From Clavelina lepadiformis (taxonomy: Eukaryota > Chordata > Ascidiacea > Aplousobranchia > Clavelinidae), in the NCBI RefSeq assembly GCF_947623445.1, contig NC_135247.1:2234501-2298500 (forward strand): a stretch of DNA of 64,000 nt. Reading direction: 5' to 3'. Below, one piece after another: positions 35,943 through 64,000 of the stretch (position 1 is its first letter; every line of letters begins with the position of its first letter). The notes beneath the pieces are model-generated. The model did no database searches. It saw only the letters and a list, made by a program, of their open reading frames with translations, and was not told the origin of the DNA. The translations under genes were made by a program, and so were the position numbers.

Positions 35943-36195
35943 TGCTTGCAATTACTGTCTACCCAATCTATATGGCACCAACTATGACTGCATTAACGAT
36001 CTGCCGAGCCCAAATGGCAATGAATAGTATGCATTGGATATGTAGCCAAAATCGTGCCCGTTTGATTTCTTTCATGAAAGGTTCAGGAAATTTTAATTTC
36101 CTTATCTATACCGAACCAGTCGGTATTTGATAAATTGATTCATTTTCGTTAGTCGTTATTTCAATCGCGTTAGTGTATACGCGTGGAGTTTTCAC
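35943..36195. other. short 5' flank of gene B
   Basis: No feature recognised. The left edge of the duplicated 6-kb unit follows at about 36196, so B's promoter region borders the duplication. Confidence 0.4.
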
Positions 36196-36756
36196 TTTTA
36201 ACAAACAGATTTATGCGACCTTAAGATTGTAATTTAACCTGACGTTTGCTAGATTCCTTATCGAAAATCTTTGCATTTTGTGCATGCCAGCAATTCACAT
36301 CAAGCGTGCCGACTATATGTTTCATAGTTTTAATGTAATTGACTATTATAAATAATAAAGACATTTTTTTCAAACTAGATGACGTTTGCGCACTTTGAAA
36401 GGCTCATCTCAAACGCAAACCGGTTTGCGTAGTTTGCGTGAGGTAGTCTCATTTCTTGTGTGAACCTCTATATTTACCCACACACATTGTCTGTTACCTG
36501 TCCCAACAGCCACTAGGTTTGTACAATTTTCTTAGTTGTAAACACATACACGTATATTATATATATTGTACGTATTCTAGTATTCAATCCAACCTAGCAT
36601 TACAAGTAACGTCAAAAAGCTTGTTTTACAAGTCGGAATCCTGAATAACTAGAACTAGAGTATTAGTGCAATAGCGTATATGGGTTGATTGATATGCATA
36701 GGATAAGATGGTTGCAATGTTGCTACATTCTACATTGATTTCTCATATGTCGGCCT

Positions 36757-39700
36757 TCAAATCATCATTTCTTTTTCCTCTGTGCTGGTAAGACTTATGT
36801 TCGTTATTTTGCTTTTTTCCTTCCGGCGTAACTGTTGATAAGAAGAACCGATGAGTAATATATGCAGGGTTTTACATTTTGCAGAAACGTTTTTTCTAAG
36901 TCTAACCTGAGACAAAGATTTTTTAGAAGTGGCAACAAGATAGAAGGCATACAGAGGAATCCAGACGGCAGAACTAGTAGAAACAAGATGGCATATAACT
37001 TGTGACCACGGTGGATAAACGTAACTTCCGACAGTCAATGGTGTGTGTGCCGCAACGTAATAAACAGAGACGGCCTAAATGTGGCACAGAATGAAAGAAT
37101 TTCAATAATGAATTATATTTTTTTGTAATGTCTCATTATTTTATACAAAAGACTTACCAAACAAATCGATGGGCCAAAGAACTTCCAAATAAAAGTAACC
37201 ACAGGTTGTAATTTGCTGGGTCCTATCATTCGATTAATTTGCTTCCAATAGTGACGAGCACCGTACACCCACCCAACCGCCACAAATTCGCAAGCAGCTA
37301 TGAAGAATAAACACCATCCAGCCACGCCATAGGTGTTAAATATCTCAAAGACATAAATTCCACCCTATTTTTCAACACAAAAAATGCTGATTTAAATAAC
37401 TTTTTAACGTTTCCAGCATGGAACTGTAGCTTAAGTAGCAGTTGACACTTTACCTCTGTGACGCAAGAAAGTCCAACTAAGAAGAATCCAATGTTACAAA
37501 CTGCCAGAAATATTTCTCTGGAGTATTTATGAAATTCTCGTAAACGAACAGAAAAATCCATAAAAAGCGCACAGAAGCTCTCCATATACACAAACTGCGG
37601 AAAAGTATTTGTATTAAGCACAACTGGGGAAAGATTGTCATAATAATAATACTGCGTACACATACAGTATTGCAGTTGTTATTGTTTGACGAAGAAATTG
37701 AATAGTTGTTACAGATTTTCTTTTTTTAATTGCTCAGCATAAATTGCCACACATAAGCACATGCCTGCGAATCCAATCCAAGGAGTAATAAAGTTAGGAA
37801 AAATATAGCGTTCCATAGTTGTGGCAGAGGAAGTAACGTCAAAGCTTGTGGGTAAGCTATAAAAACTAATCCTGGCCCTGACTGGACAACTTCAACCATA
37901 GTCAAGTTCTTTATTAGCACAATATCAAAGAGTTAGTTTAACACGCCAAGTTTCCGCATTAGAAAAGTCAATTAATACCTGATAGAACGCTATCGACCCT
38001 AAAGTAGAGAAAACAGCAAAACCGCACAAGAAACTCGCAAATCCGTTTGATACCGTGAAAATAATCACGTCTCTAAAAAAACGTTGTTATTTTATCTCTT
38101 ACAAAAATGAGTGTATTTTGCAATTTTCTATCCCTGTCTAAATAAACCGTAATTTTCCAAAATTTTTTCCAGTTATGTACATAGGCTACCTGATAAATTT
38201 TTGATGGTATTTGTTGTAGCTTCCCATAGTTATCATGCCAGCGCCACACAAACCGTAGGAATATAAAACTTGGGTCGCTGCACCAATCCACACCTGAAAA
38301 AATTGTATTGTATTGTATGCAAAATTGAGCTTTAAAATGTCTTGCATGGTTTGCTGATTATAACTACATAAAACGTATGAAATGTGCTAAAACACTAACC
38401 GTTATTTTGTTATTGGTAGCTTTTATGGCATTACGCTTTGTCAATTTTTACCTCTGGGTTTCGCAATTTTGTCAAATCCGGTTTTAGATAGTAGTAAATT
38501 CCAACAGACGCGCCCTCGAGTGTTGCTCCTTTGATAGTGACGGTTATAATCAAAATAATTGGAACAGTTGCCGTGAAGTAAACTACCTGCAAGGTATTGT
38601 GTGCAGGTATTGGAGTGATCATCACTTCATGTTACAATGTAGGCTACGTGCCTTTGATTACCTTAGCTGACCATTTAATTCCTTTAAATGTTGCTAGTTA
38701 TCCCAGAATCCATATCACAGCCAAATAAAGTACAAGATCAGGTCGCAAAGACCCCACCTGATTCAGTCCCTTGGAAATTCCCAAAACTCCGTAACTGAAA
38801 TGGCAAATAGGTCTGTTATGTTTGTAACGTTTGTTTCCACTCACGTCCAAGTAAGAAGTTTTCTTTAACTATACTTACTTCCAAAACTCTTCCGCTGAAG
38901 ACATTTGAAAGAGATTCCCTGTTTCGTTTGTAGCTTGACGTACAATTGTTGATACATTGAGAAGGTTCTTGGTCTGGTTTTCATGGCTAGCCTGCTTGTA
39001 ACTCACGCAGTGTTCGGTGTTCCACTCATTATCACAACTAACCCAAGGTAAGTTTTGAGAAAAACACGACACGAAGTATTTCAGAACCCATGCTAATATC
39101 ACCGGGTAAGAGATGTTGGAATGGGTCATTAGCATTCCAGCTGCCAGGCTAATACCTGAATAAAACATTGGGATAGATAATGAGAGACAACGGGAGACAT
39201 TATTTCCCTTCCCTTCCTACATACTCGTATATATGCACAATAGCTTCATGATTTACTAAAGGTTCGATGTGTGCTTACGCGAAGTTTTACACGAAAGCTC
39301 CCTGTAGTTAGTTAATAGGGTGTTAAAATGTTTTACCTTTAAACAAAGGTACAGTTGCCCATGACGCAATTACACCTTTCCTAACTGATTGTCCGAGTGA
39401 GACCTCCAACATCAAAAGCGGTACCGCCAAAAGGACAACAGATAACATGTATGGAATAAGAAATGCACCTGGTGAAGTGGAAATTAAAGGGTATTGCATT
39501 AAGTCATAAACCATTTCCGCGTCCATTTATAATATAGTAAAAAACAAGCTTAGCATTTTTCATCATGTGCGTTACATTGTTACTGTTTCTAAGCAGTCGT
39601 TGAGGCCAATTGGAAAGAATTTTTACTTAATGTGGTGGTAGCAAATAAAGTGATATGATTAAGCACGTAATTTAACTGTAAGTTACAAATTATAAAAAAT

Positions 39701-40015
39701 AATCTTTGATAAAAATTTAAAGCTATATTTTCCGTATAAATTTAACATCGCGTTACATTATCTAAACAACGTTATATCTAAGTCGGCCAACAACATTTGT
39801 ATGTCAATGTATGATTTTTAAATTTAACTAATTCAAACATTCGTACCTCCGCCATACTTGAAGCACAAATATGGAAATCTCCAAATGTTACCAAGTCCAA
39901 TGCAAAGACCAGCGCTTGATAATAGGAAATCCCACGGTTTACTCCACGTTTGTCTCTCGACTTTTGTCGTTTTTTTAACCACGTCTTTGTCAGTATCGCC
40001 AGAACTCGATATCAT
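36757..40015 (-). pseudogene. SLC6-family transporter, gene C, with an in-frame stop at codon 225
   Basis: Exons: 39847-40015, 39337-39468, 38879-39155, 38662-38794, 38452-38586, 38190-38293, 37979-38072, 37765-37908, 37454-37594, 37158-37364, 36907-37074, 36757-36831; 592 codons. The frame is intact except for TAA at 38698-38700, where the tandem twin D reads TAT (Tyr) in [12 protein letters not shown] truncated product would stop near the middle of the membrane domain and could not transport. The other motifs are intact: [52 protein letters not shown]. Splice sites look sound apart from a GC donor after exon 8, which D shares. The single break may be a polymorphism, a new pseudogene or an assembly error. 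Confidence 0.85.
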
Positions 40016-40084
40016 TGTTCACTTTTTATCGTTTCAACAGCTACATATATGTAACAACTTTGTTCTTTGCAGCTGCAGATAAAC

Positions 40085-40800
40085 GTTATCATTATACACA
40101 AACCTGCTTACAGTTTACACACGCTGCACTACTCTTATCACTACTTAGAACACTTGCATTATAGAATTGAAATCATGACCTATGTTGTCAAGTATACATC
40201 TACTTGGCATTCTTTTTGCGGTGCAGTGTACAATAGAAAAAGCTAAATTGCGTAACTGCAACAATGCTCGGAAACAAGAAGCTACCAAAAAATTCACGAA
40301 ATGGGTACAAGATTAAATTAAGTTTGACTTATCATATCAGCTTATCATTTGCCGGATAAAGGCTCCACCATTCTTAACGCGCATTAGTTTAATGCCATCT
40401 GCATTTACGGAAGTAGCAGTGTCGTTCTCATGAAACCTACGTTATTTCCGTTGTTCAGCTGAATTCCTAGCAATTTCCTTCACCATTCTAGCTGAGCTAG
40501 TTTGTTGATGATATAAAGGGTACTAACATTTATGTCTTATCATAACGTATAAGTACGAACTTGTCAAACTGTATAGTCTACGTACTAAGTACAGTAGCGG
40601 ATTAAGGCGTACGGGGCTGCATGATGGGTCTGCAGCCCCAGGCCCACTGGCAAGAATAGACAAACCTGAATACGAACATCCTTATCAAAATGTAACCGTG
40701 TTTACTGCAAAATTCTGCAAGTACGTGGCTTTTTTGTCAAACTTTACTTGATTGATTCTGTCAGTCAAACCCTGTATAACGAAATGCAAATAAACATGAA
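40085..40800. promoter_or_regulatory. 5' block shared by SLC6 genes C, D and E
   Basis: This ~700-bp stretch upstream of gene C recurs at about 46325-47045 (gene D) and 57378-58095 (gene E). It runs from CAGTTTACACACGCTGCAC through CGGATAAAGGCTCCACCATT to the CAGTAGCGGATTAAGGCGTA region. The CAGTAGCGGATTAAGG part itself looks like a transposon end. The position directly 5' of three transporters suggests promoter or enhancer content; that is inference. Confidence 0.45.
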
Positions 40801-42200
40801 TTTTACAGTGGGCCTATATATACTCACTAAATCTTCAGCATTCGATGACAGCTAGAAGTTCCTCTTAATGACTTCTTTGGATGATTGTTTGTTGCATTTG
40901 ATTTGCATTATTATCTTTTTGTATATCGTTGGATATTTCGTTACGGGTAATGGGTGACATATTTTTTCAAATAGTACTTATGTGTAGATAGTTTGCGATT
41001 GTAGATGAATTTTACATAAAGTGGAGAACAGTTGACATATGATACACGAGTACCCCTCTAAGCATTCTCAGCATTGCATTGTCTGTCAGCGAGATGTTTT
41101 CTTTCGGATTTATCGGCCAAACGTATTTCAAATGCTAGGACGCTAGTATAAACAAACATCAAAGTCTACTTCTAGTGCCATTATTTCCGCTCCAATCTCC
41201 CTCTCGCAAAAGCGTAAATCAACCGTTTCCGCACGTGCCAGGAAGCTGTTTTTCATTCTGTCACTTGTCGTTTCGCATGCAAGGAACCATGTCAGGATTC
41301 ACGACAATGTGAACTAAGGTGAACAAACTGTTACCACCAAGTGTTTTCGTGAAAATATATTCAACGTTTAGTTTTAGCAAAACCCCTTGTTTTTTACGCT
41401 GTGCTATATCCAAGCAGACGTTGATAAGCAGATGTTCGCTATTTTAAAATTGGTTTCTTTTTTTTCTGTTATAAAAACATTTTTAGAACAAAATCCTCGA
41501 AATCATGTAGAAGATTATATGTGTTAGTCGGTAACTCTAAAACAGGTAATTTTTGCAACAGAGGCCAAAAGTGACACTTACTTTCAAAATACTGACTGCA
41601 TTTAGCTCATCGTAAAACACAGCAACTGTTTTTAAGGTTGAACTTTGTTCACTTCCTACAAATTTTAGACATTGCAACTTTTTCGAACTAACTGTTAATT
41701 TCCTATTCTGCATTGACAGAAAAAAATTTGAGTTACAATTGGTGAAATTTATTTTGATTTGTCCTTTATAAAAACATAAAATTTTAGCTAGTCTGTTATC
41801 AAATGCCTGTCAATGTCCAACTTCCGCTTTTTACATAAAAATCGCCGACTCATGGTTTGACATCTTCGTTAACTACTCTTCAGTCTAATAATTCTGAACA
41901 CAGTTAGGATGATATCATCATACAACTGGCCCATTATCACCTTCTGTTTCAAGATCGACACCAAACGTGCGGTGTCGGAGAAAAAGCTTTCAAACGAGTA
42001 AAGATTTAGACAAGTTTTTGCATTTATCGTGCACTTTCTATGTACCTGGTTTCGGTTAAATGCTTTTCAAAAACGAGATACGTTTGCTAGGTAACCTGAA
42101 AACGTTTTCAGAAGCTCTTCGATGCCGTGGCCATGACTCTCCTTATTATGACACTACCGCATGAATGAAATGCTTTCAACGATAAAAAGAGATTGATTGA
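40801..42200. other. non-coding remainder of duplicated unit 1
   Basis: Aligned with the flank of gene D (47.0-47.7 and 50.6-51.3 kb). No coding frame was recognised. Confidence 0.5.
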
Positions 42201-42781
42201 TTCTCTTTTTACAAACCGATATATGCGACCTTAAAATTGTAATTTAACTTGACGTTTGCTAGATTCCTTACCGAAAATCTTTGCATTTTGTGCAGGCCAG
42301 CAATACACATCAAGCGTACCGACTATATGGTTTATGGCTTTAATGTAATTGACTATTATAAACAAAAAAGACATTTTTTTTCAAAACTAGATGACGTTTG
42401 CGCACTTTGAAAGGCTCATCTCAAACGCAAACTGGTTTGCGTAGTTTGCTTGAGGTAGTCTCATTTCTCGTGTGAACCTCTATATTTACCCACACGCATT
42501 GCCTGTTACCTGTCCCAACAGACACTTGGTTTGTACAGTTTTTTTAGTTGTATACACATACACATATATTATATATATTGTACATATTCTAGTTTCAATC
42601 TCATTCTCAATCCAACCTAGCATTACAAGTAACGTCACAAAGCTTGTTGTGCATGTCAGAATTCTGAATAACTAGAACTAGATTGTATCAGTGTAATAAC
42701 GTATATGGGTTGATTGATATGTATTGGATAAGATGGTTGCAATTTTGCTGCATTCTACATTGATTTTTCATGTGTCGGCCT

Positions 42782-45700
42782 TCAAATCATCATTTCTTTT
42801 TCGTCTGTGCTGGTAAGACTTATGTTCGTTATTTTGTTCTTTTCCTTCCGGCGTAACTGTTGATAAAAAGAACCGATTAGTAATGCATGCAAGATTTTAC
42901 ATTTTGCAGAAACTTTTTTTCAACATCTAACCTGAGACAAAGATTTTTTAGAAGTGGCAACAAGATAGAAGGCATACAGAGGAATCCAGACGGCAGAACT
43001 AGCAGAAACAAGATGGCATATGACTTGTGCCCACGGCGGATAAACGTAACTTCCAACAGTCAATGGTGTGTGTGCCGCAACGTAATAAACAGAGACGGCC
43101 TACATGTGGCACAGAGTGAAATTATTTCATTAATGAATTATAATTCAATGTAATGTCTCATTATTTTATACAAAAGACTTACCAAACAAATCGATGGGCC
43201 AAAGAACTTCCAAATAAAAGTAACCACAGGTTGTAATTTGCTGGGTCCTATCATTCGATTAATTTGCTTCCAATAGTGACTAGCACCGTACACCCACCCA
43301 ACTGCCACAAACTCACAAGCAGCTATGAAGAACAAACACCATCCAGCCACGCCATAGGTGTTAAATATCTCAAAGACATAAATTCCACCCTATTTTTCAA
43401 CACAAAAAATGCTGATTATTTAACTTTTTAACGTTTCCAGCATGGAACAGTAGCTTAAGGAACAGTTGACACTATACCTCCGTGACGCACGAAAGTCCAA
43501 CTAAGAAGAATCCAATGTTACAAAGTGCCAGGAATATTTCTCTGGAGTATTTGTGAAATTCTCGTAAACGAACAGAAAAATCCATAAAAAGCGCACAGAA
43601 GCTCTCCATATACACAAACTGCGGAAAAGTATTTGTATTAGGCTAAGCACAACTGGTGAAAGATTATCATAATAATAATACTGTGTACATATACTGCAGT
43701 TGTTATTGTTTGATGAAGAAACTGAATGGTTGTTACAGATTTTCTTTTTTTAATTGCTCAGCATAAATTGCCACACATAAGCACATGCCTGCGAATCCAA
43801 TCCAAGGAGTAATAAAGTAAGGAAAAATATAGCGTTCCATAGTTGTGGCAGAGGAAGCAACGTCAAAGCTTGTGGGTAAGCTATAAAAACTAATCCTGGT
43901 CCCGACTGGACTACTTCAACCATAGTCAAGTTCTTTATTAACATAATATCAAAGAGTTAGTTTAACACGCCAAGTTTCCACGTTAGAAAAGTCAGTTAAT
44001 ACCTGATAGAACGCCATCGATCCTAAAGTAGAGAAAACGGCAAAACCGCACAAGAAACTCGCAAATCCGTTTGATACCGTGAAAATAATCACGTCTCTAA
44101 AAAAACGTTGTTATTTTATCACTTACAATAATAAGTGCATTTTGCAATTTTCTATCCGTGTCCAAATAAACCGTAATTTTCAAATGTTTTTTCCAGTTAT
44201 GTACATACCTGATAAAGTTTTGATGGTATTTGTTGTAGCTTCCCATAGTTATCATGCCAGCGCCACACAAACCGTAGGAATATAAAACCTGGGTCGCTGC
44301 ACCAATCCACACCTGAAAAAATAGTTCTGATCCATGTCCAAATCATAATTGCCGCTGATACATGCGTTTGAATAGTATGCAAAATTGCGCTTTGGAATAT
44401 CTTGCATGGTTTGCTGATTATAACTATATAAAACGTATGAAATGTGCTAAAAAACTAACCGTTATTTTGCTATTGCTAACTTTCATGGCATTACGCTTTG
44501 TCAATTTTTACCTCTGGGTTTCGCAATTTTGTCATATCCGGTTTTAGATAGTAGTAAATTCCAACAGACGCGCCCTCTACTGTTGCTCCTTTGATAGTGA
44601 CGATTATAATCAAAATAATTGGAACAGTTGCCGTGAAGTAAACTACCTGCAAGATCTTGTATGTTCAAGTATTGGAGTGATCATCACTTCATGTTACAAT
44701 GTAGGCTACGTGCCTTTGATTACCTTAGCTGACCATTTAATTCCTTTAAATGTTGCTAGATATCCCAGAATCCATATCACAGCCAAATAAAGTACAAGAT
44801 CAGCTCGCAAAGACCCCACGTGATTAAGTCCCTTGGAAATTCCCAAGACTCCGTAACTGAAATGGAAAATAGGTCTGTTATGTTTGTAACGTTTGTTTCC
44901 ACTTACGTCCAAGTAAGAAGTTTTCTTTAACTATACTTACTTCCAAAACTCTTCAGCTGAAGACATTTGAAAGAGATTCCCTGTTTCGTTTGTAGCTTGA
45001 CGTACAATTGTTGATACATTGAGAAGGTTGTTGGTCTGGTTTTCATGACTAGCCTGCTTGTAACTCACGCAGTGTTCGGTGTTCCACTCATTATCACAAC
45101 TAACCCAAGGTAAGTTTCGAGAAAAACACGACACCAAGTATTTCAGTACCCATGCTAATATCACTGGGTAAGAGATGTTGGAATGGATCATTAGCATTCC
45201 TGCTGCCAGGCTAATACCTGGATAAAACATTGGGATAAAATGATAGATAATGAGAGACAACGGGAGACATTATTTCCCTTGCCTACATACTCGTATATAT
45301 GCACAATAGCTTCATGATTTACTAAGGGTTCGATGTGTGCATACGCGAAATTTTACACGAAAGCTCTCTGCAGTTAGTTATTAGGGTATTAAAATATTTT
45401 ACCTTTAAACAAAGGTACAGTTGCCCATGACGCAATTACACCTTTCCTTACTGATTGCCCAAGTGAGACCTCCAACATCAAAAGCGGTATCGCCAAAAGG
45501 ACAATAGATAACATGTACGGAATAAGAAATGCACCTGGAGAATTGGAAATTAAACGGTATTGCGGTACGTATAACGGTACGTCATACATGTTTTACCAGT
45601 AAACATATTAACTTGAAATGATCTAGAAAGTGTGTTTGCTATATTTTATAGTATATATGTGTGTTATAAGTGAGGTTTTGATCATACGCGATACGTGGTA

Positions 45701-46241
45701 AAATGTTAACACCCACTATGCCTAATAGAAATTAAACCATTTCCGCGTCCATGTATAATATAGTAAAAAACAACATTAGCTTTTCTCATCATGTACGTTA
45801 CATTGTTAATGTTTCTAAGCAGTCGTCGGGGCAAATTGGAAATAATTTGCACTTAATGTGGTGGTAGCAAATAAAGCGTTATGTTTAAGCACGTAATTTA
45901 ACTGTAAGTTACAAATTATAAAAAATAATCTTTGACGAAAATTTAAATCTATATTTTCCGTATAAATTTAACATCGCGTTGCATTATCTAAACAACGTTA
46001 TATCTAAGTCGGCCAACAGCGTTTGTATGTCAAAGTATGCTTTTTTAATTTAACTAATTCAAACATTTGTACCTCCGCCATACTTGAAGCACAAATATGG
46101 AAATCTCCAAATGTTACCAAGTCCAATTGAAAGACCAGCGCTTGATATTAGGAAATCCCACGGTTTACTCCACGTTTGTCTCTCGACTTTTGTCGTTTTT
46201 GTAACCACGTCTTTGTCAGTATCGCCAGAACTCGATATCAT
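42782..46241 (-). CDS. SLC6-family transporter, gene D (intact twin of C)
   Basis: Exons: 46073-46241, 45403-45534, 44941-45217, 44724-44856, 44512-44646, 44209-44312, 44003-44096, 43789-43932, 43478-43618, 43183-43389, 42932-43099, 42782-42856; 592 residues with no internal stop. It is nearly identical to C, with scattered replacements (for example GLSIGLGN in TM1 where C has GLCIGLGN). Family motifs are all present: GGGAFLIPY, the EL2 pair in [10 protein letters not shown], several N-x-T/S glycosylation sites after it (NVS, NET), [17 protein letters not shown] in TM8. The glycine at the monoamine-aspartate position and the tyrosine in ISYPVILAW (matching Tyr140 of GAT1) favour an amino-acid or GABA-like substrate. 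Intron 8 begins with GC rather than GT. The tail ends EKEMMI. Confidence 0.93.
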
Positions 46242-46324
46242 TGCTCACTTTTTATCGTTTCAACAGCTACATATATGTAACAACTTTTTTCTTTGCAGCT
46301 GCAGATAAACGTTATTATTATTTT

Positions 46325-47045
46325 ACACAAACATGCTTACAGTTTACACACGCTGCACTACTCTCATAGTCATCACTAATTAGAACACTGCATTATAGAA
46401 TTGAAATCATGACCTATGTTGTTAAGTATATATCTATTTGGCATTCTTGTTGCAGTGCAGTGTACAATAGAAAAAGCTAAATTGCGTAACTGCAACAATG
46501 CTCGGAAACAAGAAGCAACCAAAAAATTCACGAAATGGGTACAACGTTAAATTAAGTTTGACTTATCATATCAGCTTATCATTTGCCGGATAAAGGCTCC
46601 ACCATTCTTAACGCGCATTAGTTTAATGCCATCTGCATTTACGGAATTAGCGGTGTCGTTCTCATGAAACCTACGCTATTTCCGTTGTTCAGCTGAATTC
46701 CTAGCAATTTCCTTCACAATTTTAGCTGAGCTAGTTTGTTGATGATATAAAGGGTACTAACATTTACGTCTTATCATAAAGTATAAGTACGAACTTGTCG
46801 AACTGTATATAGTCTACGTACTAAGTACAGTAGCGGATTAAGGCGTACAAGGCTGCATGATGAGTCTGCAGCCCCAGGCCCACTGGCAAAAATAGACCCA
46901 CCTGAATACGAACGTCTTTATAAAAAATAACCATGTTTACTACAAACTTCTGCAGGTACGTGGCTCTTTTGTCAAGTTTTTACTTGGTTGAAATACTATC
47001 AGTCAAACCCTGCAGTCAAACTTTCAGTCAAATCCGGCCTATATA
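46325..47045. promoter_or_regulatory. 5' block of gene D, shared with C and E
   Basis: Second copy of the block described at 40085-40800, in the same position relative to its gene. Confidence 0.45.
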
Positions 47046-47743
47046 TACTCGCTAAGTCTTCAGCATTCGATGCCAGCTAAACGTTGCTCTTTACGACTTC
47101 ATTGGATGATTGTTTGTTGCATTTGATTTGCATTGTTATCTTTGTGTATATCTTTGGATATTTCGCTGCGGGTAATGGGTGACAGATTTTTGCAAATAGT
47201 ACTTATGTGTAGATACTTTGCGCTTCATGATGAATTTTGCACAAAGTGGAGAACATTTAACACGTGATACACGAGTATCCCTCTAAGCATTCTGAGCATT
47301 GCAATATCTGTCAGCGAAATTTTTCTTTGCGGATTTATCGGCCAAACGTATTTCAAATGCTAGGACACTAGTATAAACAAACATCAAAATCTACTTCTAG
47401 TGCCATTATTTCCGCTCCAATCTCCTTCTCGCAAAAGCGTAAAGCAACCGTTTCCGCACGTGCCAGGAAGCTGTTTTTCATTCTGTCACTTGTCGTTCCG
47501 CATGCAAGGAACCATGTCAGGATTCACGACAATGTGAACTAAGGTGAACAAACTGTTACCACCAAGTGTTTTCGTGAAAATATATTCAACGTTTAGTTGT
47601 AGCAAAACCCCTTGTTTTTTACGCTGTGCTATATCCAAGCAGACGTTGATAAGCAGATGTTCGCTATTTTAAAATTGGTTTCTTTTTTTTCTGTTATAAA
47701 AACATTTTTAGAACAAAATCCTGGAGATCATGTAAAAGATTAT

Positions 47744-50614: not shown

Positions 50615-50618
50615 TTAT

Positions 50619-52450: not shown

Positions 52451-55400
52451 TTACAACATTTCTTCTTCTTCGCTGATGATATTTTCATGTTTTGTTTCTT
52501 CTGTATTTACCTTCCGACGTAACTATACAACCAGAAAGAAGGATGTGTTAGCTATACCTTAAATATCATTTTATCCTATTATGCCTTACCTGTGACCAAG
52601 GTTTCCTTGAAGTAACAACGAGATAGAACGCGTATAGTGGAATGCACATGGCAGAACTAGTCGCAACAATATGACATATTGCTTGTGCCCACGGTGGATA
52701 GACGTAACTTGCATAAGAGAGGGGGCTGTGTGCGGTCACGTAGTAGATAGAGATCGTCTACAGAGTAATTGTGATATGGTTTATCTACCGCATAGATTTT
52801 AGATTTTTAGAGCATTGTTTGGAAATTCGTCAAACAAGTATGTAAATTCCTCACCATGCAAATTGCCGGTCCAATATATTTCCAAACCAAAGCAACCACA
52901 AATCGTATCCTGGAATATCCAACCATTCGGTTGATTTCGTCCCAGTGACGATCAGCACCGTACACCCAACCAACCGCTACAAACTCACACGTAGCCACTA
53001 AGAATACGGACCAACCTGCCGAGCCATATGTGTTGAATATTTCGAAAACGTAAACGCCACCCTGTTGATATGAATTGGACATAGTAACAAAGCTAAACCT
53101 TTGGAAGGCATAAATTTGGATCACACCTTTTTATCTATGAAAATAGTGCCGGAAAGGTTTTTTCTTACATGATAGAATTCGTTATGTTTCAAACGACCTA
53201 GTCATATTTACCTCTGTCACGAAAATAATACCAAGCAAACAAAATCCAGCGTTACAGACCGCAAAGAATATTTCTCGGGAATATTTGTGAAAATTTCGTA
53301 AGCGAGGATAACTGTCCATAAAAAACGCACAGAAGCTCTCCACGTACACAAACTGCGAAAAACAGTTACCAGTAACCCAACTTGGACTGTGTTGGCAAAC
53401 ATTAATCACTTGTCGTTTCAATCTTGAGCCAAAACGTGATTTATAACAGTTAACCAGTTATTATTTTGCCCATCGGTTTTTGACTTAAACCTGTGAATCA
53501 AATCCCAACAGCAATATTGTGAGAAAGAATAGAACATTCCATAATTGCGGTAGAGGGAGCAAAGCTAACGCTTGTGGATAAGCTATGAACACCAGTCCTG
53601 GTCCTGATTGGACAACCTCATTCATCGTTAAGTTCTGGTTGATATAACAAGGTTGTAAGTTGAGAATATTTAAAGGAAAATTTTTACAAGTTTACAAATT
53701 TTTTCTAAAACTGTTTAAAAAAGAAGTTTAAATTTACTACACCTGGCGAAACGCCATTGATCCTAGAGTGGAAAATACAGCAAAACCACAAACAAAGCTC
53801 GCGAAGCTATTAGAAAATGCGATCATCGTCACGTCCCTGCGCGAAACGGCAATCATCATTCAATTTGCTAAGGTTGGTTTTTGGTTAACTAAAGAAATCA
53901 AGAGACCGTTCAAGATGCATATTATATAAATTTTAAATAACCTACCTGATAAAGTTGTGATCATAGTTGTTGTAGCTACCCAAAGTTAAAACTGCTCCCG
54001 CGCATACACCACTAGTATATAATACCTGAGTGGCAGCCGCAATCCAGACCTATATAATGCAAATTTTAGAAAGCATTTCAATCAGCTGTGTTCAAAAAGT
54101 AGGGAACTGTGTAATAAGCAGTCTCTACTGGAAGAAGAACTGTATATTATAATTGTTGCAGGTGGTGGAACTTCGCCCAGTACTTAAGATATATTTTCTA
54201 CAGTTCATATTGTGACCTACATATACAGGAGACAAATTTGACCATAATCACAACACATTTTATGGAATGGCGGTTGAAAGGGGTTTTTGTTTTCTTTGGG
54301 TTGTCTAAATAGATTAACATGGGTTTCGTTACTCTTGGTTGGAAAATACAGCAAATTTATGCCATGAAAAAGTTTCTCGTTATCATTATTAAGTGTTGTT
54401 TTCTCATGGAAGCAGCTGGCATTCGTACAGTTGCACAGCTTAAAGGGAACCTTAGCTTAAAGCAGGGGTTCCCAACCTTTTTATGTTCTCGTACCACTTA
54501 GCCACCACGGATTGTCAACACGTACCACTATTTTCAAAACAACTAATTTGATCCAATATTCGCACAGCAGCATTGTATTAATAACAATGACAGCAGGCAG
54601 CAAGATCGACAAAAGTAGCTTACTGAGTGCAGAGAATTTAGTACGGAAAGAAATAAAAGTGTTGTTCGCATATTTTAGCAACTCAAATTTAAATTGTTAT
54701 ACTACTATACTGTATATCGCATGCAACGGAGAGCTGCTCGCGTACCACCTGAAAAGCTCCAGCGTATCACTAGTGGTACGCGTACCACCGGTTGGGAACC
54801 CCTGGCTTAAAGGAAAGCTTAAAGCAACTATTAGCATAAAAGTTACGCGTATTTGACTGAATTGCATTGCATGCAAGTAAGTATTTGATGGTTTGGTACC
54901 TGCAGGTGTCCAAATCCTTACCCCGGCTTCCCACCGACTAAACAGACAATTTGTTTTATTTTACCTCGGGATTCTCCAGCTGTGTCATATTTGGCTTTAG
55001 ATAGTAGTAAATTCCAACAGACGCGCCCTCCAGTGTTACTCCTCTGGCCATGACGATTATTATTAAAATAAGTGGAAGCGTTGCTGTGACGTAAATAACC
55101 TGCAGTGTACAGCACGATTTTAGCTGAAGAAACGTGATCCAAGCTATAGCTCGACCATTATTTGTACCTTAGCTGACCACTTAATTCCTTTAAAAATTGC
55201 AAAATATCCAAGAATCCAGATAAAGGTCAAGTAAAGGACAAGTTCTCCGTTCAGGCGTCCTATTTCACTAAGACCATTTGATATTCTTAAGACTCCATAA
55301 CTAAAAAAAACGTTGTGTATTATGCAGTGCAGTGTAATTTTTCTATACAAAGTGCTTTCAACTTTTAAGATTAAGTTTTTCTAATGTTAGTTTGTTTGTA

Positions 55401-57374
55401 TGTTTGAGTCAACCAGTTTGTACCTTGGTGATGCAGTAACGTTTTAAAGTTAACAGTTTTTAACATGTTTTCACAACCTAAGTTAAGCAATCCAGTTACA
55501 AACGAAGATCGATGTAAAAGCGTCCTGTGGTGGGTTAGTAAAGGAAAGAGATTTTTTATGGGAATTGCTGCTGTAACTTTAGTTTGGGAGTGGTTCTATT
55601 TTTATAACGTTTTGGTACTGATTATAATAAATGTTGCTACATTTAGTGGGAACTAAATAAACTTACTTCCAAAATTCTTCGGCTGAAGATGTTCCAAGTA
55701 TTTGACCTGTTTGATTTGTTACATTTGAAACTGTGATCATCGATGCGTTGTTGGTATCATCTAAATATTGCTTCTCCCATAAGCTGACGCAGTGTTCAGT
55801 GTTCCATTCATTATCACAACTCATCCAGGGCAAGTTTGAGGAGAAACTGGAGACGAGATATTTGAAAACCCAAGTCAATATCACCGGGTAGGAAAGGTTT
55901 GTATGGAATAAAATCATCGCGCTCGCAATGGAAATACCTGCATTGTAAAATAAAACTATTTTAACGTCGATTTTTATTACATTTTCATTTTATTATTCGT
56001 GAACCTTGTTTGCAATTTTAGGATACGTTTTAGTTAACTCCGCTGTGATACAAGTTATAGGATATTATGATGGATCAAATTCTTTCGTTTCGACCCATGT
56101 TAACAGCTTTTCCTTTTTTAGCTATTCTTATTGGTTATTGCGGACAATTACGCATTGTACATTTGTACAATTACACCTTAAATTGAGTTGAATGTGAAAA
56201 TTAGCACAGCTTCCTAAGGAGATTTAACTTTTCGAAACATCTTCGGTGAAGACATCAACACTTGTTTTATGGAATGAAATTGTTTCCATCAGGCTTTTTT
56301 GTGATTTGAGCGTTTCTTATCTTGGAGATCGTTTCTTTGGGCATGAAGTTTATTTTAGATCAACATTTAATAATTTGTCTTGTTTTATTCTGTTTTTCGG
56401 ACTTCGATACACACGAAGATTCACCCTATCTTTTTTCAAAATTTGGGTTTGGTTAGACCACCCAAACCACATTACGGACGAAAAAGCTGTTCCCAGTTAA
56501 CAACAATATGAACTATCATCAAAACTAAATCTACACACATCACAGCAAAAATTCAAACGGTGAAATATTTTTTCCACAGCTGCTTTCGCAGAAGTATGCA
56601 ATCTCTTACGGCTTTTTAAGTTGCATTGTTTATCGCTTAGCTGATTATATGAATGCTCTGGGAAAAAAAGGTTTACAGTAGCTCCATACTTTAGTCAACT
56701 CCTTCGTAGCCTATGCATGAAATGTTCAGTCATATAATTGTAAACGAACTTTCCGCGGCAATTACGCAGTAATAAAGCTTGAAACTAATATAGGCCACTA
56801 TAGAAAAGTGTAATTCGGGTTGTGCAGAATGATACCTTTAAACAAGGGTATAGTTGCCCATGATGCTGCTAAGCCTTTCCTTACTGACTGACTTAGTGAC
56901 ACTTCTAAAATCATCAGAGGGAATACGATAACAATGAGAGTCAGCAAATATGGGATGAGAAATGCACCTAAAAAATTGAACATAATAACTGGTCATTGAA
57001 CGGTAATGAATTTGTATAGCAGTGAGCAAAAACCAAGAGGCAATGTTTTTAACTTACACGAACATTTTAATTAAGGCTTTACTTAAGCTCCAGTTAAGCA
57101 CATTATGAGCCGGCTGTTTTATGTTTTATTGTCGTAAACCCTTGTTGTGAAAAATGTTTGGTTACAGCCAAACAACAATAGTTTCATTTGCATATTTCTT
57201 ACCTCCTCCATACTTAAAACACATATAAGGGAACCTCCAAATATTTCCAAGGCCTATACTGACACCAACGCTTGACATGTAGAAATCCCACGGTCTACTC
57301 CACGTCTGTCGCTTTTTCTCCTTCGAGTTTGTTACTACCGAATCATCCTGTTGACTATTTGTATTTCGCTCCAT
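52451..57374 (-). CDS. SLC6-family transporter, gene E
   Basis: Exons: 57203-57374, 56836-56967, 55667-55937, 55168-55300, 54965-55099, 53946-54049, 53743-53836, 53491-53634, 53212-53352, 52855-53061, 52590-52757, 52451-52522; 590 residues. The same exon phases as A-D are kept, but the protein has diverged. TM2 reads EVSLSQ instead of EVSLGQ, TM6 reads [14 protein letters not shown] (a threonine where GAT1 and the other four genes have the chloride-site serine), and the following loop is [11 protein letters not shown]1 [17 protein letters not shown]2 [12 protein letters not shown]7 [12 protein letters not shown] and GFDSQ in TM8 are kept. It is likely a working carrier with altered ion or substrate preference. 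Introns are larger than in its relatives, and intron 5 holds a hAT MITE. The acidic tail ends EEEEML. Confidence 0.92.
54463..54804. mobile_element. hAT MITE, 342 bp, in intron 5 of gene E
   Basis: The ends CAGGGGTTCCCAACC and GGTTGGGAACCCCTG are perfect inverted partners, flanked by the 8-bp duplication GCTTAAAG (54455-54462 and 54805-54812). GTACCAC words recur near both ends. It has the same general design as the MITE at 13287 but a different sequence, so it is a separate hAT family. No coding capacity. Confidence 0.92.
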
Positions 57375-57377
57375 CAG

Positions 57378-58095
57378 TTATTATACAGTTTACACACACT
57401 GCACAACTCTCATCACTACTTAGAACACTGCATTATAGAATTGAAATCATGACCGATGTTGTCAAATATATATCTACTTGGCATTCTTTTGCGGTGCAGT
57501 GTACAAAAGAAAAAGCTAAATTGCGTAACTGCAACAATGCTCGGAAACAAGAAGCTACCAAAAAGTACACGAAATGGGTGCAACGTTAAATTAAGTTTGA
57601 CTTATCATATCAGCATATCATTTGCTGGATAAAGGCTCCACCATTCTTAACGCACATTAGTTTAATGCCATTTGCATTTACGGAATTAGCGGTGTCGTTC
57701 TCATGAAACCTACGCTATTTCCGGTGTTCAGCTGAATTCCTAGCAATTTCCTTCACAATTCTAGCTAAGCTAGTTTGTTGATGATGTAAAGGGTACTAAC
57801 ATTTATGTCTTATCATATCATAACGTATAAGTACGAACTTGTCGAACTGTATAGTCTACGTACTAAGTACAGTAGCGGATTAAGGCGTACGGGGCTGCAT
57901 GATGGGGCTGCAGCTTCATGCCCACTGGCAAAAATAGGCCCACCTGAATACGAACATCTTTATAAAAAAATAGCCATGTTTACTACAAAAGTCTGCAAGT
58001 ACGTGGCTTTTTTGTCAAATCTTTACTTGATCGAAATGCTGTCAGTCAAGTCCTGTATAGCGATATGCAAATAAACATGAAATTTACAGTAGGTC
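57378..58095. promoter_or_regulatory. 5' block of gene E, nearly identical to those of C and D
   Basis: The match to the C and D flanks begins about four bases upstream of E's ATG (CAGTTTACACACACTGCAC follows) and ends near 58095. In C and D the same block begins about 70-85 bp upstream of the ATG. A promoter role is inferred from position only. Confidence 0.45.
57449..57589 (+). CDS. small open frame of 46 codons, divergent from gene E
   Basis: ATG at 57449 opens MTDVVKYISTWHSFAVQC and runs to TAA after KYTKWVQR: a lysine-rich peptide with no recognised domain, no signal peptide and no membrane segment. The corresponding stretches upstream of C and D carry a base change that shifts the frame after TSTWHSF or SIWHSC, so the frame is not kept. 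It is probably chance within the shared 5' block, or a former exon. A real gene is unlikely. Confidence 0.15.
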   Translation: MTDVVKYISTWHSFAVQCTKEKAKLRNCNNARKQEATKKYTKWVQR

Positions 58096-60235
58096 TATTT
58101 ATAAGCCTACGCATTATTACTGTATAAAAGCAATAGTTGAATAACGTAGAACCCCAAAGGTTAACATTTGTTTATTTCTATCAACTTTTGGAAGCTTGAT
58201 TTTGCTTCTTTATGTGTTATTGTACGAAATATGTAGCTGTGTGAAACTTTCGCATCCCTTAGTCATGTATTTGTGTTAGACCAGGTGATTGTTTTTTCAC
58301 AATTTTTTTCAATTGATTTTATTTCGCCCCTTTACAGGAATTTTTTCCGTGATTCTGGGAATACAACCATTAGTACAACAACAACTTTTTGAAATGAATA
58401 TTGCAAATAAAATTCAAAGCGTTTTCGAGTTTTAGACGTTTTCGAGTCCTTGCTACAGAGCGTGATTTCTGTTTTCATTCTGTGGTTTTTCTTCAAATTA
58501 TCATCGAAAATAGTACAAAGAGGCCACCTATGAATCGTTATTGTTTAAGCTATTACCGCTTGCTGTCGTGCTTGCAGAATGCAGAAGATAGACACAACCT
58601 ATACATGGCAAACCCATTCTTACATCACATTTAAAGTCACGAATAGCTACTCAACAAACTCATGAAAAGTTTTATATCTTGCGTATAGCCAATACTAGGC
58701 TTAGTTTGTTTTACATTTATTATAAGGGATGATTGTTTTGCGAAACTAACTTTATTTCGTTCTTAAATCTTTAACATCACTTGTTTTCTGTCGAACCAAA
58801 CTTGGCACGTAAACGTTGCTTCCATCTGTAGAACGCGGTGAAGTTGGGCTACTTTGCACCGTATTGGTATAGAAGAACAGCTAATACTAAGAATTCGTGT
58901 ACATAAACGTTCAGTAAAATGTTGAGCAGCATATAAAAATTGTAGCAAACAAACAACTTGATTTACAAAATTAAGTTAAGTCGTCGAATATTGTAATTTA
59001 TTGGTTCCAATTAATGAAGAAGCAATAAAAATTGCGTCGACGAGTAATTCCCCTAATGTAAAACCACAATGCAACTTCCTAAATCCATCATAACCTACAT
59101 ATAAGTTTATTTGCTTATAAAACAATCGAAACTTTTAAATAAGATTTAAAGAGAATGTTTTAGTTAAATATTTTTAACAAGTTATTTTTATGACACGTTT
59201 AGAGTAATACTGTTTGTAAATATTTCATATGCATTTTGTTTTGTTGTAAATGGTAGAGAAGACAAGATTTAATGTAGGTCCATTGACACCTTTTAGCCCC
59301 CGGCCTACAATGTAGTTTATCTGCTATGAACTTGTAGTTATATGATACATTAGACAGTAGTTTTCTTTTCATTAAAATCACGATCACAATAACTTTTTTA
59401 CAAAATGTAAAATCAAGGTTTTGCCAAGCACGAGATCGAGTTCGAACACGTTAGGCTCAAACTTCAGCATTTTCCAGCGTTCTCACAAACTTGAGCTTCA
59501 CTTCTGGATTTATCCAAAGGTTAACTTATAGAATAAAATAAACACAACTAATATTATTGCAAGATAATATTTTTTAAAAGGCAACATTCGCCCTTTCCTT
59601 GCAACCAGCTTAATTCTTCCCTACCGCATTCGTGATCCCCTTCTTGCTTTAAAAAGGATGTTTTGTTATTTGCTGTTATAGCTGCTTCGTAGGCCTACAT
59701 TCTTTATTTACAGCTTGTTCGTCGTTTTGTTTACGCAGTTGTTGAATGTGTTAATAAGTGTTTCATGCAGTCAGTGATTATATATCTGTGTTAATCTTCT
59801 ATTTGTGGCTGGTTACAGAAAACTGTTCGAATCTCTGCTTAATACACTTCGTTTTGTATTCTGCTGGAAAATCTGTATGAATAAATTTGTTCTGAGGAAG
59901 TTGTCAGGTAAATTTGATAGTGTATGGAGTTTCATCAAACAAAGCATTGAATCACATCATTTGTGCGGGACGACAATAGTGTGTGGTAGCGAAAGTAAAA
60001 CACAATCATTTGAAAGAAACTTTCACTAGCTTGAAAGCTAAATACAATGTGTTTTATTCCTCAGCTGGACAAACTTGTGCTCGTATAGCATAAGCGCAAT
60101 GTAGCGTAAACAATTCATAAAGCATGGTTCGAAAGCCTGTTCTAATACTATCAGCAATTACGATTGTTTTTAAAAAAAAAACATGGTTTTAAGTGAAAAC
60201 CATTAGTGGGATAGTTTTAATAAGTGTATCCATTT
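58096..60235. other. no gene recognised between SLC6 gene E and the fucosyltransferase
   Basis: AT-rich DNA without a recognisable frame. TTTATT at 60053-60058 (AATAAA on the minus strand) lies about 180 bp past the fucosyltransferase stop and is a plausible polyadenylation signal. Confidence 0.45.
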
Positions 60236-62907
60236 CTATCTTGTCGGTAAAGATTTTATCAAACCTGTCATGCTTCGAGCAAGGTTTACGTCCATACATT
60301 CTCTTCTGACAGTGCCTTCCCACCAGTCATTTACCAACTTTATCGTGTAGGTGTCGCTGCTGTGCCGGTCATGCAGTTTTCGGCACAAACCACAAAATCC
60401 ACTTGGAATTGGATTCAAATATTTCAAGATTGTTTTGCACTGCTCTTTGCTTAGTAGATTAAATTCTGCATTCGTTTCCACATTTGATGAAAGTTCGCCA
60501 TTTTTGTCCAGAAATTTGACCCAAGTTCTCCATTCTAAATACTCGGCGTATGCTGTGACGTTTTTATCCAGGTAATAAATATATTTCACCAAATCTGCTG
60601 GATTTTTAAAATCCTCTGTATGAATATAAGATTTCGGTGGCAAGACAGCACTGATGTCATCTTTGTGCGGTCCGAATATGATTGGAACGGCTCCGCTGTA
60701 TAAAGCGTTGTACCAAAGCTTCTCTGACATGTATCCATTACAATGATATGCGTTTTCGAAAGCAAGATAAAACTTGTATCTAGACATAAAACTGATTACA
60801 ACTTTGCAAAATATCTTAAACTGCATTATACGCCAAATAAAATTCAATTAACTTGGTTATTTAAATCGACAACAATTCATCAGTATACAGTTGACGCCAT
60901 CTTAATTTAACAGTTAAATTCAAATTTTCAGTGACTTACAAGCTTAAAACTTTTCTAAACGAAGGGTCCCATCTGCTTGCTATTGGAAAAGGTACTCCTG
61001 AACATCGACCAAACTGATCGATTTTTAAACCATATTTTCGGAGGAGGTCTGCATATTCGAAACGCAAATACGAAGATGGAATGTTTCCACAATTACTAAC
61101 TATCCATGCGATTAACCTGTCGTAGAAAATCTTGTTAAATGGTTAAATTCTCTGTTTTCTCAGCAGTTTTTCTTACCCTTTTTTATAGTTAAGCAACGTC
61201 TTAAGCTCGGCGTTACTTTGGTGAAGTTCAATATTGGCTGCACCAAACGAGTTTACAGGAACTGAGTGGATGGCTTTATTCAGGCTTTCTGGGTCAGTCA
61301 GTGTCACGTTTTTCTCTTTCGCTATAAAGTGCATGATATCGCGGCCATGTTTCTTGTTCCTGTGTATAAAAATTTTATTGCTTAGACAGACATGAATGCA
61401 AATGTTTTATTTCTATTTCTGTTTGTACCACAGCATTTTGAGAATCCAAGGTAAAGTTGAATACGGAGAATGCACTCCGGATGATCTTCGGACGCTCATT
61501 GTCAAGTTGAAGAAGAAATCTGGAACAGCTTTAGTTCGAAAGGGAACTCCCGCAGTGCTTTCCTGTAGCCACCAGATGTAGAGTTGCTTTTGCTGTCTGC
61601 GTTGTTAAACGAAAAAACCTGTGTTGCTTTTATTGTTCATGGCAATGACAATAATTGATTACAACAGCACACAAGATGAGTAGCTTACACTACGTGTACT
61701 CACAGCTTAGCTCTGGTATAACCTATTTTGGGCAACCAAAATACTGTACATAAAATAGAGTTTCGTCAACCTGAGGGATTTTTCTGGAAGGTCGTATGAC
61801 CGCTTGTTGACATCGGGTACATAAAAGACGACAGAATCACTTTTACTTATCAATGTTCTATCAAATGTGAGTCGGCACTTTCCGCAGATCTTTGAATCGA
61901 CGGTTATCCTGGAAAGCTTCTACGATTAACTATTGGAAATAAAGCTTGACAAAGTTTTACATAATAAGCATACGGTTCATGAACTCAATTGCACACTTAC
62001 TCATTGTTGACATCGTTTATAGTTACATTGTTAGTTTCATGCAGATATTCTAAAGGTACAGTTCGGTCGATTCCGTACGGTACAAACCAGAATAGGATAA
62101 CTTTTTCCGTCGAATCTTCGAGTCTAATAAAAGAAAACTTCTTTCAAGTTCAATCGTGTTTCTGTCAAAGGTTTGTGGCAAAAAGATACAGAAAGCATAT
62201 ACATTAGAAGAGTTAAATAAGTTTTTTTTTTCTAAACCACAGGATTTTGTTGAACGTTTGCAAGAAAATAGGGCAATAGTTTTACTGGAAATAAAAATTT
62301 AAATATTTGTTGTAAATTTTTGCTACTGATAGCTCAATGCGTCAGCTCGGTTCTTGCTTTTTGCTTTTCTTTGCATATTCTTGGTTTCGGAGGAATTTCC
62401 GTGAAAAATTCGCAAGAGATAACCTTGAACGCTGAAATCCCTTCTTCAAAAATTTGTTGCTGAATAAAGAAAACGTATAAATTAAGTTCAATCGTTTGCT
62501 GTCGATGTGTTACTAAAACATAAACAGGACGCACAAAGTGCAATTAATTAATTATACTTCTACTAACTTGTATCTTAAGGTATTTTAACATGTCTACAAG
62601 AGAGCTGGTTAAATATTATTTTGTTGGGACTGAAAGTTTAAGCTCTAAATCTTTATTGTAAGTTTGTGCTATTAGAAGTACAACAGCGCTCTTACTTTTT
62701 ATCTTCTGAATAAATTCGGTTTTCAAGGATTTTCGTTTATTCATACTCAGTGGAGAGACTAGAACGAGGATATTGTTGATTTTTTCTTTAAGCTTGCGCG
62801 ACATATGGACTAGTTTTGCCTCCATTTTTTAAATAGATGGTGAAGGTGTAATAAATTGTCGCTAGGCATAATACTGCCAGTAACTTCCACAACATATTTT
62901 TTTGCAT
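60236..62907 (-). CDS. alpha-1,3-fucosyltransferase (GT10 family)
   Basis: A Golgi type II enzyme that moves fucose from GDP-fucose to N-acetylglucosamine-containing glycans. Exons with matching phases: 62001-62123, 61771-61908, 61429-61596, 61177-61359, 60940-61116, 60236-60779, giving 443 residues. Seen: VILFWFVPYG; the block LYIWWLQEST then FFNLTMSVRRSSGVHSPYS; GLIAWIVSNCGN; and the GT10 signature FYLAFENAYHCNGYMSEKLW followed by GAVPIIFGP. The C-terminus has closely spaced cysteines (C-G-L-C) as in other members. A start exon is likely at 62907 (MQKNMLWKLLAVLCL, a hydrophobic signal anchor), but the join from there to 62123 is not resolved; one or more stem exons lie between. Exact linkage specificity cannot be read from the sequence. 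Confidence 0.85.
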
Positions 62908-64000
62908 GATGCCCTCTTTGCTACAGCACAGTACTAAGTAGCGTGTCAAGACGATTGCCCAAACATTCCACAGCAAAACTTAGTTTGAAAAGGAAATTTA
63001 ATATTTTACTTCAGCACTTTACCAACTTGCAACTGAATATGGATACTGAATATGCAAATGTGAAATAAAAAAATATGCCAACTCTACAGTTACTTACGCA
63101 CTTTATTGATGAATGAACGTTACACTCTCGATTAAACGTATAAAGAGAGTGACATGTTTTTGCGTAACTCACATGTCATAAATACCATACGATATCTCAT
63201 ATTTCGCTATATAGAGAAAAACTTGTAATATCGTAATTTATTGTTTGCAAATTAAGAAATGAAAATCAGATGCAGTGCTTTAAAATCAGATGCAAAGTTT
63301 ATAAGAGTTTTGAAATTCGATATAGTGTATACTGTAGTAGTAACGCACAACATTTGAAAACATCTTAAACTAACAAACAACTAACAAAATCTAAACACTA
63401 TGTTTCTGCTAACCTCTACACTCGCTCAAATAACGCAATGTTTTTCTTCAGCAACTCAAATTGAAATTGCAATAACCTATAGCTTCCAGCAACGTTTTTT
63501 ATAAAATAACCAACTGCTAACAAAACTGTTTCAAACAGTTTGAAACAAACCTTTCAGTTTTGTCCAACCTATTCGAATTCTAAGTTTTCAGAAGTCTATT
63601 CGTGGAATAGATTCAATATTTATTTCCTTCTGTAGCTTCCTTCGTTAAACCATGTCTATCTATTGATGTAAGTAATTCTATACTTTTGTCTGTGACACGA
63701 ATAAAATATCAAGCTATCTTTTTTAATTGTTCACCAGATTCGACTATATCTGGTAACTTTCTCTGTCACAACAAACCTCTGAATGAATTTACGAATAACT
63801 TTTCAATAAACAGCAGTGTCAGTTCTTCAGTTATTGGTCAATGCAAGTAAGTTTGAGCTGTTTGACAGAGATAAAAAGCTTATAGCAGTGGACAAGTCCG
63901 ATTTTGTTTGTGATGTAAATTCCGGAATGCAGCAGTAAGAAAAATTATAACGTGCTTCTTGTAATGGGTTATTGCGAGTACGTGTATGTGTGACTTATTT
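62908..64000. other. no gene recognised at the right edge
   Basis: AT-rich DNA upstream of the fucosyltransferase. It probably includes its promoter, but no motif stands out. Confidence 0.4.

What the first reader, a model, noticed from the sequence alone, without database searches (positions are those of the whole stretch)
57378..58095. A diverged transporter (E) with a 5' flank nearly identical to those of C and D
The coding exons and introns of E differ clearly from C and D, but ~700 bp starting about four bases before its ATG is almost the same as the C and D flanks, then similarity stops. Equal ages cannot explain this. Gene conversion, or copying of a promoter block onto E, would give the three genes shared control.
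Basis: partly seen in the sequence, partly recalled or inferred. Interest (0 to 1): 0.7.

Follow-up and report, generated by a model that had tools for sequence, protein, structure and literature searches.

The report
Sea-squirt transporter promoter passed between genes
In a sea squirt, a 0.7-kb piece of DNA containing the probable switch of one transporter gene was carried long ago onto a distantly related neighbouring transporter, and the same switch also sits in front of five copies of an unrelated sugar-transferase gene.

Summary
In Clavelina lepadiformis chromosome 8, window 57384-58103, upstream of SLC6-type gene E, is 91.7% identical to C and 91.2% to D, although coding synonymous sites are saturated (C-E dS 1.34; C-D 0.09). 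Both edges are abrupt.

Three corrections. (1) Direction is probably E-type to C/D, not onto E: the distal third (57870-58103) starts an old dispersed transposon that continues in E to about 59308 but is cut at the block edge in C and D. (2) The block is composite: the proximal 477 bp was found at eight places genome-wide, all within about 70 kb; the distal third is dispersed. (3) The five other places lie beyond the window, in a 4,565-bp tandem array where E-type promoter plus SLC6 exon 1 stands upstream of five GT10 fucosyltransferase copies, same orientation.

C carries an in-frame stop, so 'three genes under shared control' is doubtful. Promoter activity is not shown; slower change of the proximal part is weak support. 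The kind of event is known; the double redeployment of one promoter is the interesting part.

The parts
57384..57869 (-). Proximal part of the shared block upstream of E: probable promoter and 5' leader
   Evidence: 94.8% to C and D, 95.2% to array unit; 57384-57860 found at 8 places in the genome, all on chr 8 in this locus
57870..58103 (.). Distal part of the shared block: left end of a dispersed transposon starting CAGTAGCGGATTAAGG
   Evidence: 32 listed matches outside the locus (lower bound), 71-85% identity; starts located
57870..59308 (.). The E copy of the transposon, continuous across the block edge apart from an internal gap near 58421-58429; old, about 25% from other copies; imperfect terminal inverted repeats in 4 of 5 dispersed copies viewed
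   Evidence: 20 of 22 dispersed copies align past 58103 in E; right extent 59296-59308 with 4 of the 7 long copies fetched, shorter with the other 3; termini viewed
52590..57374 (-). Gene E, SLC6 sodium:neurotransmitter symporter (nine exon segments, no internal stop)
   Evidence: Pfam SNF PF00209 E=6.4e-121 for a draft of joined exon segments; exon segments and stops
40109..40822 (-). Copy of the block upstream of gene C; transposon alignments end at or before 40821
46338..47012 (-). Copy of the block upstream of gene D; transposon part shorter by a small further change
36907..40015 (-). Gene C, SLC6 type; in-frame TAA in exon 4 at 38698-38700
42932..46241 (-). Gene D, SLC6 type, tandem duplicate of C; no stop in the nine exon segments
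36191..42194 (.). Duplicated C unit, repeated as 42201-51290 (D unit, with about 2.9 kb of extra DNA at 47744-50615)
60236..62907 (-). GT10 fucosyltransferase gene next to E; relatives form the array 24-51 kb beyond the window's right end, where the E-type block and exon 1 lie upstream of five copies
   Evidence: Pfam Glyco_transf_10 E=4e-34 for an array copy

Best explanation
The block is the native 5' flank of an E-type SLC6 gene: about 490 bp of probable promoter, backed by an old dispersed transposon. A 0.72-kb piece of it (promoter plus the first 234 bp of the transposon) was joined once, 93 bp upstream of the start codon, to the progenitor of C and D, before C and D arose by tandem duplication. 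The transfer was made by ectopic conversion, templated insertion or a deletion fusion; I cannot tell which. Separately, an E-like gene paired with a fucosyltransferase lost everything downstream of intron 1. Its promoter plus exon 1 then stood upstream of the neighbouring fucosyltransferase gene, and unequal exchange amplified that unit to five near-identical copies. Shown: shared block, abrupt edges, transposon truncation in C/D, old coding divergence, grouping (C,D) against (E,array), array anatomy. Inferred: that the block is an active promoter, the direction (strong but indirect), the recombination mechanism, the history of the array, and any effect on expression.
For: (1) Edges and identity. 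(2) Age contrast: C-E dS 1.34, D-E 1.31, C-D 0.09, E-array exon 1 0.10, against proximal block differences of 3.7-5.9% in all six pairs. (3) Direction: 20 of 22 dispersed transposon copies align past the block edge in E, 0 of 22 in C (edge 40822), and in D none beyond 47014 (edge 47012). The copies were chosen by similarity to 57865-58103 only, so not for their continuation; they are the 22 of 32 listed dispersed matches for which loci were returned. The sequence that follows the cut in C (40823-41518) was found only in C and D, so no later repeat insertion is seen there. (4) One event before the C-D duplication: sites grouping C+D against E+array are 6, 5 and 3 in the three sub-regions, against 1, 5 and 0 for the other two groupings together (14 against 6). 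(5) Array: the fragment (57080-58277 equivalent) lies 686 bp upstream of the ATG in each of five fucosyltransferase copies, same strand, with exon-1 ATG and splice donor kept in 5 of 5. The copy at the right-hand end of the array lacks it. (6) Constraint: proximal C-D difference 3.8% against 6.8% in introns (p=0.015), 8.1% in the 3' flank (p=0.002) and 6.5% in the upstream flank (p=0.048).
Against: No outgroup genome is held, so the flank of C/D before the transfer is unknown, and the truncation in C/D could be a later deletion. In the transposon part the site groupings conflict (5 against 5), so repeated exchange is not excluded. No homology between C/D and E is left beyond the right edge, which plain gene conversion would usually leave. 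The slower change of the proximal part is modest: against E-array intron 1 (p=0.6) and distal flank (p=0.17) it is not significant, nor quite against the E-array transposon part (p=0.054); and the proximal part does not differ from exons. No transcript data were available.
Confidence: 0.72

Rival explanations
1. Direction reversed: the block with a whole transposon belonged to the C/D progenitor and was copied onto E; C/D later lost the rest of the transposon.
For: Star-like distances (proximal 3.7-5.9% for all six pairs) give no polarity by themselves.
Against: Needs an extra deletion exactly at the block edge before C and D split, and the transfer would have had to carry the whole transposon, of which C/D shows no trace beyond the edge. 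E's exon 1, intron-1 start, block and the next stretch of transposon are together in the array units too.
Confidence: 0.12
2. Deletion fusion rather than copying: an E-like gene lay upstream of the C/D progenitor, and a deletion removed its coding body and the old C/D promoter, fusing its promoter to C/D. This is a variant of the best explanation (same source, same product), so its probability is part of that one.
For: The array shows that such a truncation to promoter plus exon 1 probably happened to another E-like gene. An exon-3 remnant of SLC6 type lies 3' of a fucosyltransferase copy.
Against: It explains one edge only; the cut in the transposon needs a second break.
Confidence: 0.25
3. 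Strong purifying selection has kept an ancestral promoter shared by descent in C, D and E.
For: The proximal part changes more slowly than most neighbouring non-coding DNA.
Against: The transposon part of the same block, not expected to be constrained, differs by only 10-11% between C or D and E while synonymous sites are saturated; A and B are not among the places with the block.
Confidence: 0.03
4. The whole block is a high-copy mobile repeat with no special link to these genes.
For: The distal third is one.
Against: The proximal 477 bp was found at 8 places only, each directly 5' of an E-type SLC6 exon 1 or of C/D exon 1.
Confidence: 0.02

Closest known systems
CYP11B1/CYP11B2 chimeric gene of glucocorticoid-remediable aldosteronism (PMC3848474: start of abstract in a search listing; the control-region detail is recalled)
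   Same: Recombination between neighbouring paralogs puts one gene's 5' control region on another's coding sequence.
   Different: There one crossover makes a hybrid gene in patients. Here a 0.7-kb piece with two edges was fixed, between paralogs too diverged for easy crossing over, then duplicated with its new gene.
HMA4 tandem transporter cluster of Arabidopsis halleri (PMC3749932 and PMC4566976: start of abstract in listings and passages)
   Same: Tandem transporter genes shaped by ectopic gene conversion, with interest in their promoters.
   Different: Mirror image: there the coding sequences were homogenised and the promoters diverge. Here the promoter is shared and the coding sequences diverge.
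Chimeric and partial gene duplicates that recruit foreign 5' sequence (review PMC3449122, passages only)
   Same: Partial duplication or deletion places control DNA of one gene beside another; the fucosyltransferase array fits this.
   Different: The same promoter is involved twice at one locus, next to two unrelated gene families.
Imperfect-inverted-repeat DNA transposons, possibly hAT-like (recalled label)
   Same: Start CAGTAGCGGATTAAGG and end ...TTAATCCGGCTCTG are imperfect inverted repeats.
   Different: Family not tested; an 8-bp target duplication was suggestive in one of five copies viewed.

Membership tests
Ectopic (interlocus) gene conversion tract | Short tract of high identity between paralogs whose surroundings are much more diverged | tested here: met
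Ectopic (interlocus) gene conversion tract | Homologous sequence outside the tract on at least one side to seed the exchange, normally both | tested here: inconclusive
   Left side: exon 1, 65% identical. Right side: none left, 45%.
Ectopic (interlocus) gene conversion tract | Donor and recipient can be told apart | tested here: met
   Transposon continuous in E, cut in C/D; indirect, no outgroup
Recurrent conversion / concerted evolution | Network-like site patterns among copies | tested here: inconclusive
   14 sites for one grouping against 6 for the others; 5 of the 6 lie in the transposon part
SLC6 / SNF transporter family (gene E) | Pfam SNF above its cut-off | tested here: met
   405.1 bits, cut-off 27; best solved relatives by sequence are creatine, betaine, GABA and taurine transporters
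GT10 fucosyltransferase (array genes) | Pfam Glyco_transf_10 C-terminal domain above its cut-off | tested here: met
   118.3 bits, cut-off 23.9, for one array copy
Promoter | Transcription starts inside the block | not testable with these tools
   No RNA reads held

The most novel reading that the evidence does not exclude
One transporter promoter became a locally mobile control module. Over a span of about 70 kb it was placed upstream of a distant transporter paralog and, with its first exon, upstream of an amplified fucosyltransferase gene, so that two unrelated gene families now share one expression programme, the fucosyltransferases through an alternative first exon spliced from SLC6 exon 1.
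Probability: 0.25. Interest if true: 0.62.

Novelty: new member of a known kind. Interest (0 to 1): 0.42.

Why it matters
It is a clean natural case in which a control region and the coding region behind it have different histories, with a transposon serving as an internal marker of direction. Duplicate genes are usually treated as if flank and coding part shared one age; here they do not. If the block drives D, E and the fucosyltransferase array, the locus would be a direct test of how co-expression of unrelated neighbours arises by rearrangement, in a chordate whose tunicate relatives can be assayed by electroporation (recalled).

Tried and rejected
Shared ancestry with constraint: rejected by the transposon part of the block. 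Whole block a high-copy repeat: rejected for the proximal 477 bp, true for the distal third. A structured RNA in the block: one chance-level Rfam match outside it, E=0.87. A later repeat insertion breaking the transposon in C/D: not seen, the sequence beyond the cut was found only in C and D. Tandem Repeats Finder on L012, a 10-kb piece of the array, gave 0 rows; its longest period is 500 bp. A first alignment of dispersed transposon copies mixed both strands and was not used for any count; the search replaced it. Simple single-step tandem duplication as origin of the array: rejected because the leftmost fucosyltransferase copy of the array keeps its own 3' flank and lacks the fragment there. 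Two SLC6-exon comparisons showed a stop; that of B lies at the second residue, before the conserved part of the exon, and I read it as intron read-in; that of C is inside exon 4. Literature: searches listed no paper that by its title concerns this locus; not all matching papers were listed (species name plus SLC6) found 0 papers. This covers only the held library. PMC3924832 and PMC4777540 (ectopic conversion in Drosophila; mouse urinary proteins), listed, may hold closer precedents and were not read.

Full report
WHERE. The window is C8:2234501-2298500 of a 209-Mb genome. The contig length, 19,509,797, equals the N90 scaffold length and the 19.51-Mb chromosome 8 of Clavelina lepadiformis reported in PMC10884593 (passages read); contig C4, 25,070,715, equals the reported N50. 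Not every figure agrees: C1 is 28,783,666 against 28,789,166 reported, and 95 contigs against 102 scaffolds, so the held copy differs a little from the published one. All genes discussed are on the minus strand, so 'upstream' means higher coordinates. For the region beyond the window I use coordinates that continue the window's (position = C8 - 2234500).

THE OBSERVATION. E 57384-58103 is 91.7% identical to C 40109-40822 and 91.2% to D 46338-47012, while E's other aligning segments match C and D at 64-79%, one 36-bp piece at 89%. C and D themselves are about 92% alike over 36191-41518, gene and flank. The left edge falls after ...GTGTAAACTGTA, 9 nt before E's ATG but 93-96 nt before the ATGs of C and D. 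On the right, C-E identity drops to 45% while C-D stays at 91%. Over nine exon segments C-E has dS 1.34 and D-E 1.31, against 0.09 for C-D. The block differs by 5.2% (proximal) and 10-11% (57870-58033) between C or D and E. Equal ages are excluded.

THE BLOCK IS COMPOSITE. Searched alone, 57384-57860 is found at eight places in the genome: C, D, E and five more, all on chromosome 8 between 2274609 and 2345366. Searched alone, 57865-58103 has 40 scored matches of 59 candidates, 8 of them these loci and 32 elsewhere on chromosomes 1 to 9 at 71-85% (lower bounds). It is the start of a transposon that begins CAGTAGCGGATTAAGG. Of seven long copies fetched, four reach a common right end and three stop earlier; imperfect inverted ends show in four of the five viewed.

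DIRECTION. In E, 20 of 22 dispersed copies align on past the block edge at 58103 (two, L043 and L045, stop before it; L039 continues after a gap). In C, 0 of 22 pass 40822 and the furthest ends at 40821; in D, 0 of 22 pass 47014. The E copy runs to about 59308. The DNA that follows the cut in C was found only in C and D, and no match to the missing remainder of the transposon was found in the C-D unit. So E-type sequence is the likely source and the C/D progenitor the recipient. This is an inference from parsimony; no outgroup is held.

TIMING. Among C, D, E and an array copy, informative sites favour (C,D) with (E,array): 6 against 1 in the proximal part, 5 against 5 in 57868-58033, 3 against 0 in the tail. 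One transfer shortly before both duplications fits; the conflict in the transposon part means that later exchange cannot be excluded.

BEYOND THE WINDOW. Continuing to 134 kb, the five other places form an array with a 4,565-bp period; four of the five units were compared and differ at 0-3 positions of 4,565, while the left-hand stretch 88456-93300 is about 99% identical to them. Each of five fucosyltransferase copies (GT10; Pfam for one copy) has, 686 bp upstream of its ATG and in the same orientation, a 1.2-kb piece equivalent to window 57080-58277: SLC6 intron-1 start, exon 1 with ATG and splice donor, the block and a further stretch of transposon. Exon 1 of this piece is 96% identical to E's. 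The fucosyltransferase copy at the right-hand end lacks the piece, and the leftmost copy keeps its own 3' flank, in which an SLC6 exon-3 remnant survives. The simplest reading, an inference, is that SLC6-fucosyltransferase gene pairs were duplicated, one E-like SLC6 gene was reduced by deletion to its promoter and exon 1 behind a fucosyltransferase gene, and unequal exchange between flanking fucosyltransferase genes multiplied the unit.

FUNCTION. No transcript evidence could be read. The proximal part changes more slowly between C and D (3.8%) than introns (6.8%, p=0.015), 3' flank (8.1%, p=0.002) and upstream flank (6.5%, p=0.048), and no differently from exons (exon limits there are approximate and the tests are not corrected for number). 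It is slower than the transposon part in all six pairs, at p<0.05 in five. For E against the array copy it is not significantly slower than intron 1 or the distal flank. A regulatory role is therefore likely but weakly supported. A TATA-like and an initiator-like stretch can be seen by eye about 60-100 nt upstream of E's ATG; this is my reading and no tool tested it. C has TAA in place of D's TAT in exon 4 (38698-38700), so C may not make a full transporter in this haplotype.

VERDICT. The finding is real and its core idea is right, with the direction probably reversed and the 'three genes' picture changed: one possibly dead (C), two without a stop in the nine exon segments examined (D, E), plus five fucosyltransferase genes. 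Regulatory capture by recombination between neighbours is a known kind of event (chimeric CYP11B genes, start of abstract in listing; review PMC3449122, passages). The HMA4 cluster shows the opposite pattern, shared coding and separate promoters (passages).

Noticed in passing
38698-38700: Gene C has an in-frame TAA in exon 4 where D and E have TAT; C may be a pseudogene in this haplotype.
   Followed up: yes
C8:2322956-2349177 (24-51 kb beyond the window's right end): Tandem array, period 4,565 bp, four of five units compared differing at 0-3 bases of 4,565, each with a GT10 fucosyltransferase gene and an SLC6 exon-1 and promoter fragment upstream.
   Followed up: partly
C8:2322104-2322166 (continuation coordinates 87604-87666): A short SLC6 exon-3 remnant 3' of a fucosyltransferase gene, within a stretch repeated at 95% near two other fucosyltransferase copies; suggests old SLC6-fucosyltransferase pair duplications.
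   Followed up: partly
47744-50615: About 2.9 kb present in the D unit and absent from the C unit at the matching point, with open frames of 176 and 204 residues and no Pfam match; probably an inserted element.
   Followed up: partly
59835-64000 and C8:2350153-2354319: The window's fucosyltransferase region has a 97.8% identical second copy about 56 kb to the right.
   Followed up: no
13679-13978 and 15231-15530: A 300-bp direct repeat listed at 100% identity.
   Followed up: no
26364-26550 and 26682-26868: A 187-bp inverted repeat, 99% complementary, with a 131-bp spacer.
   Followed up: no
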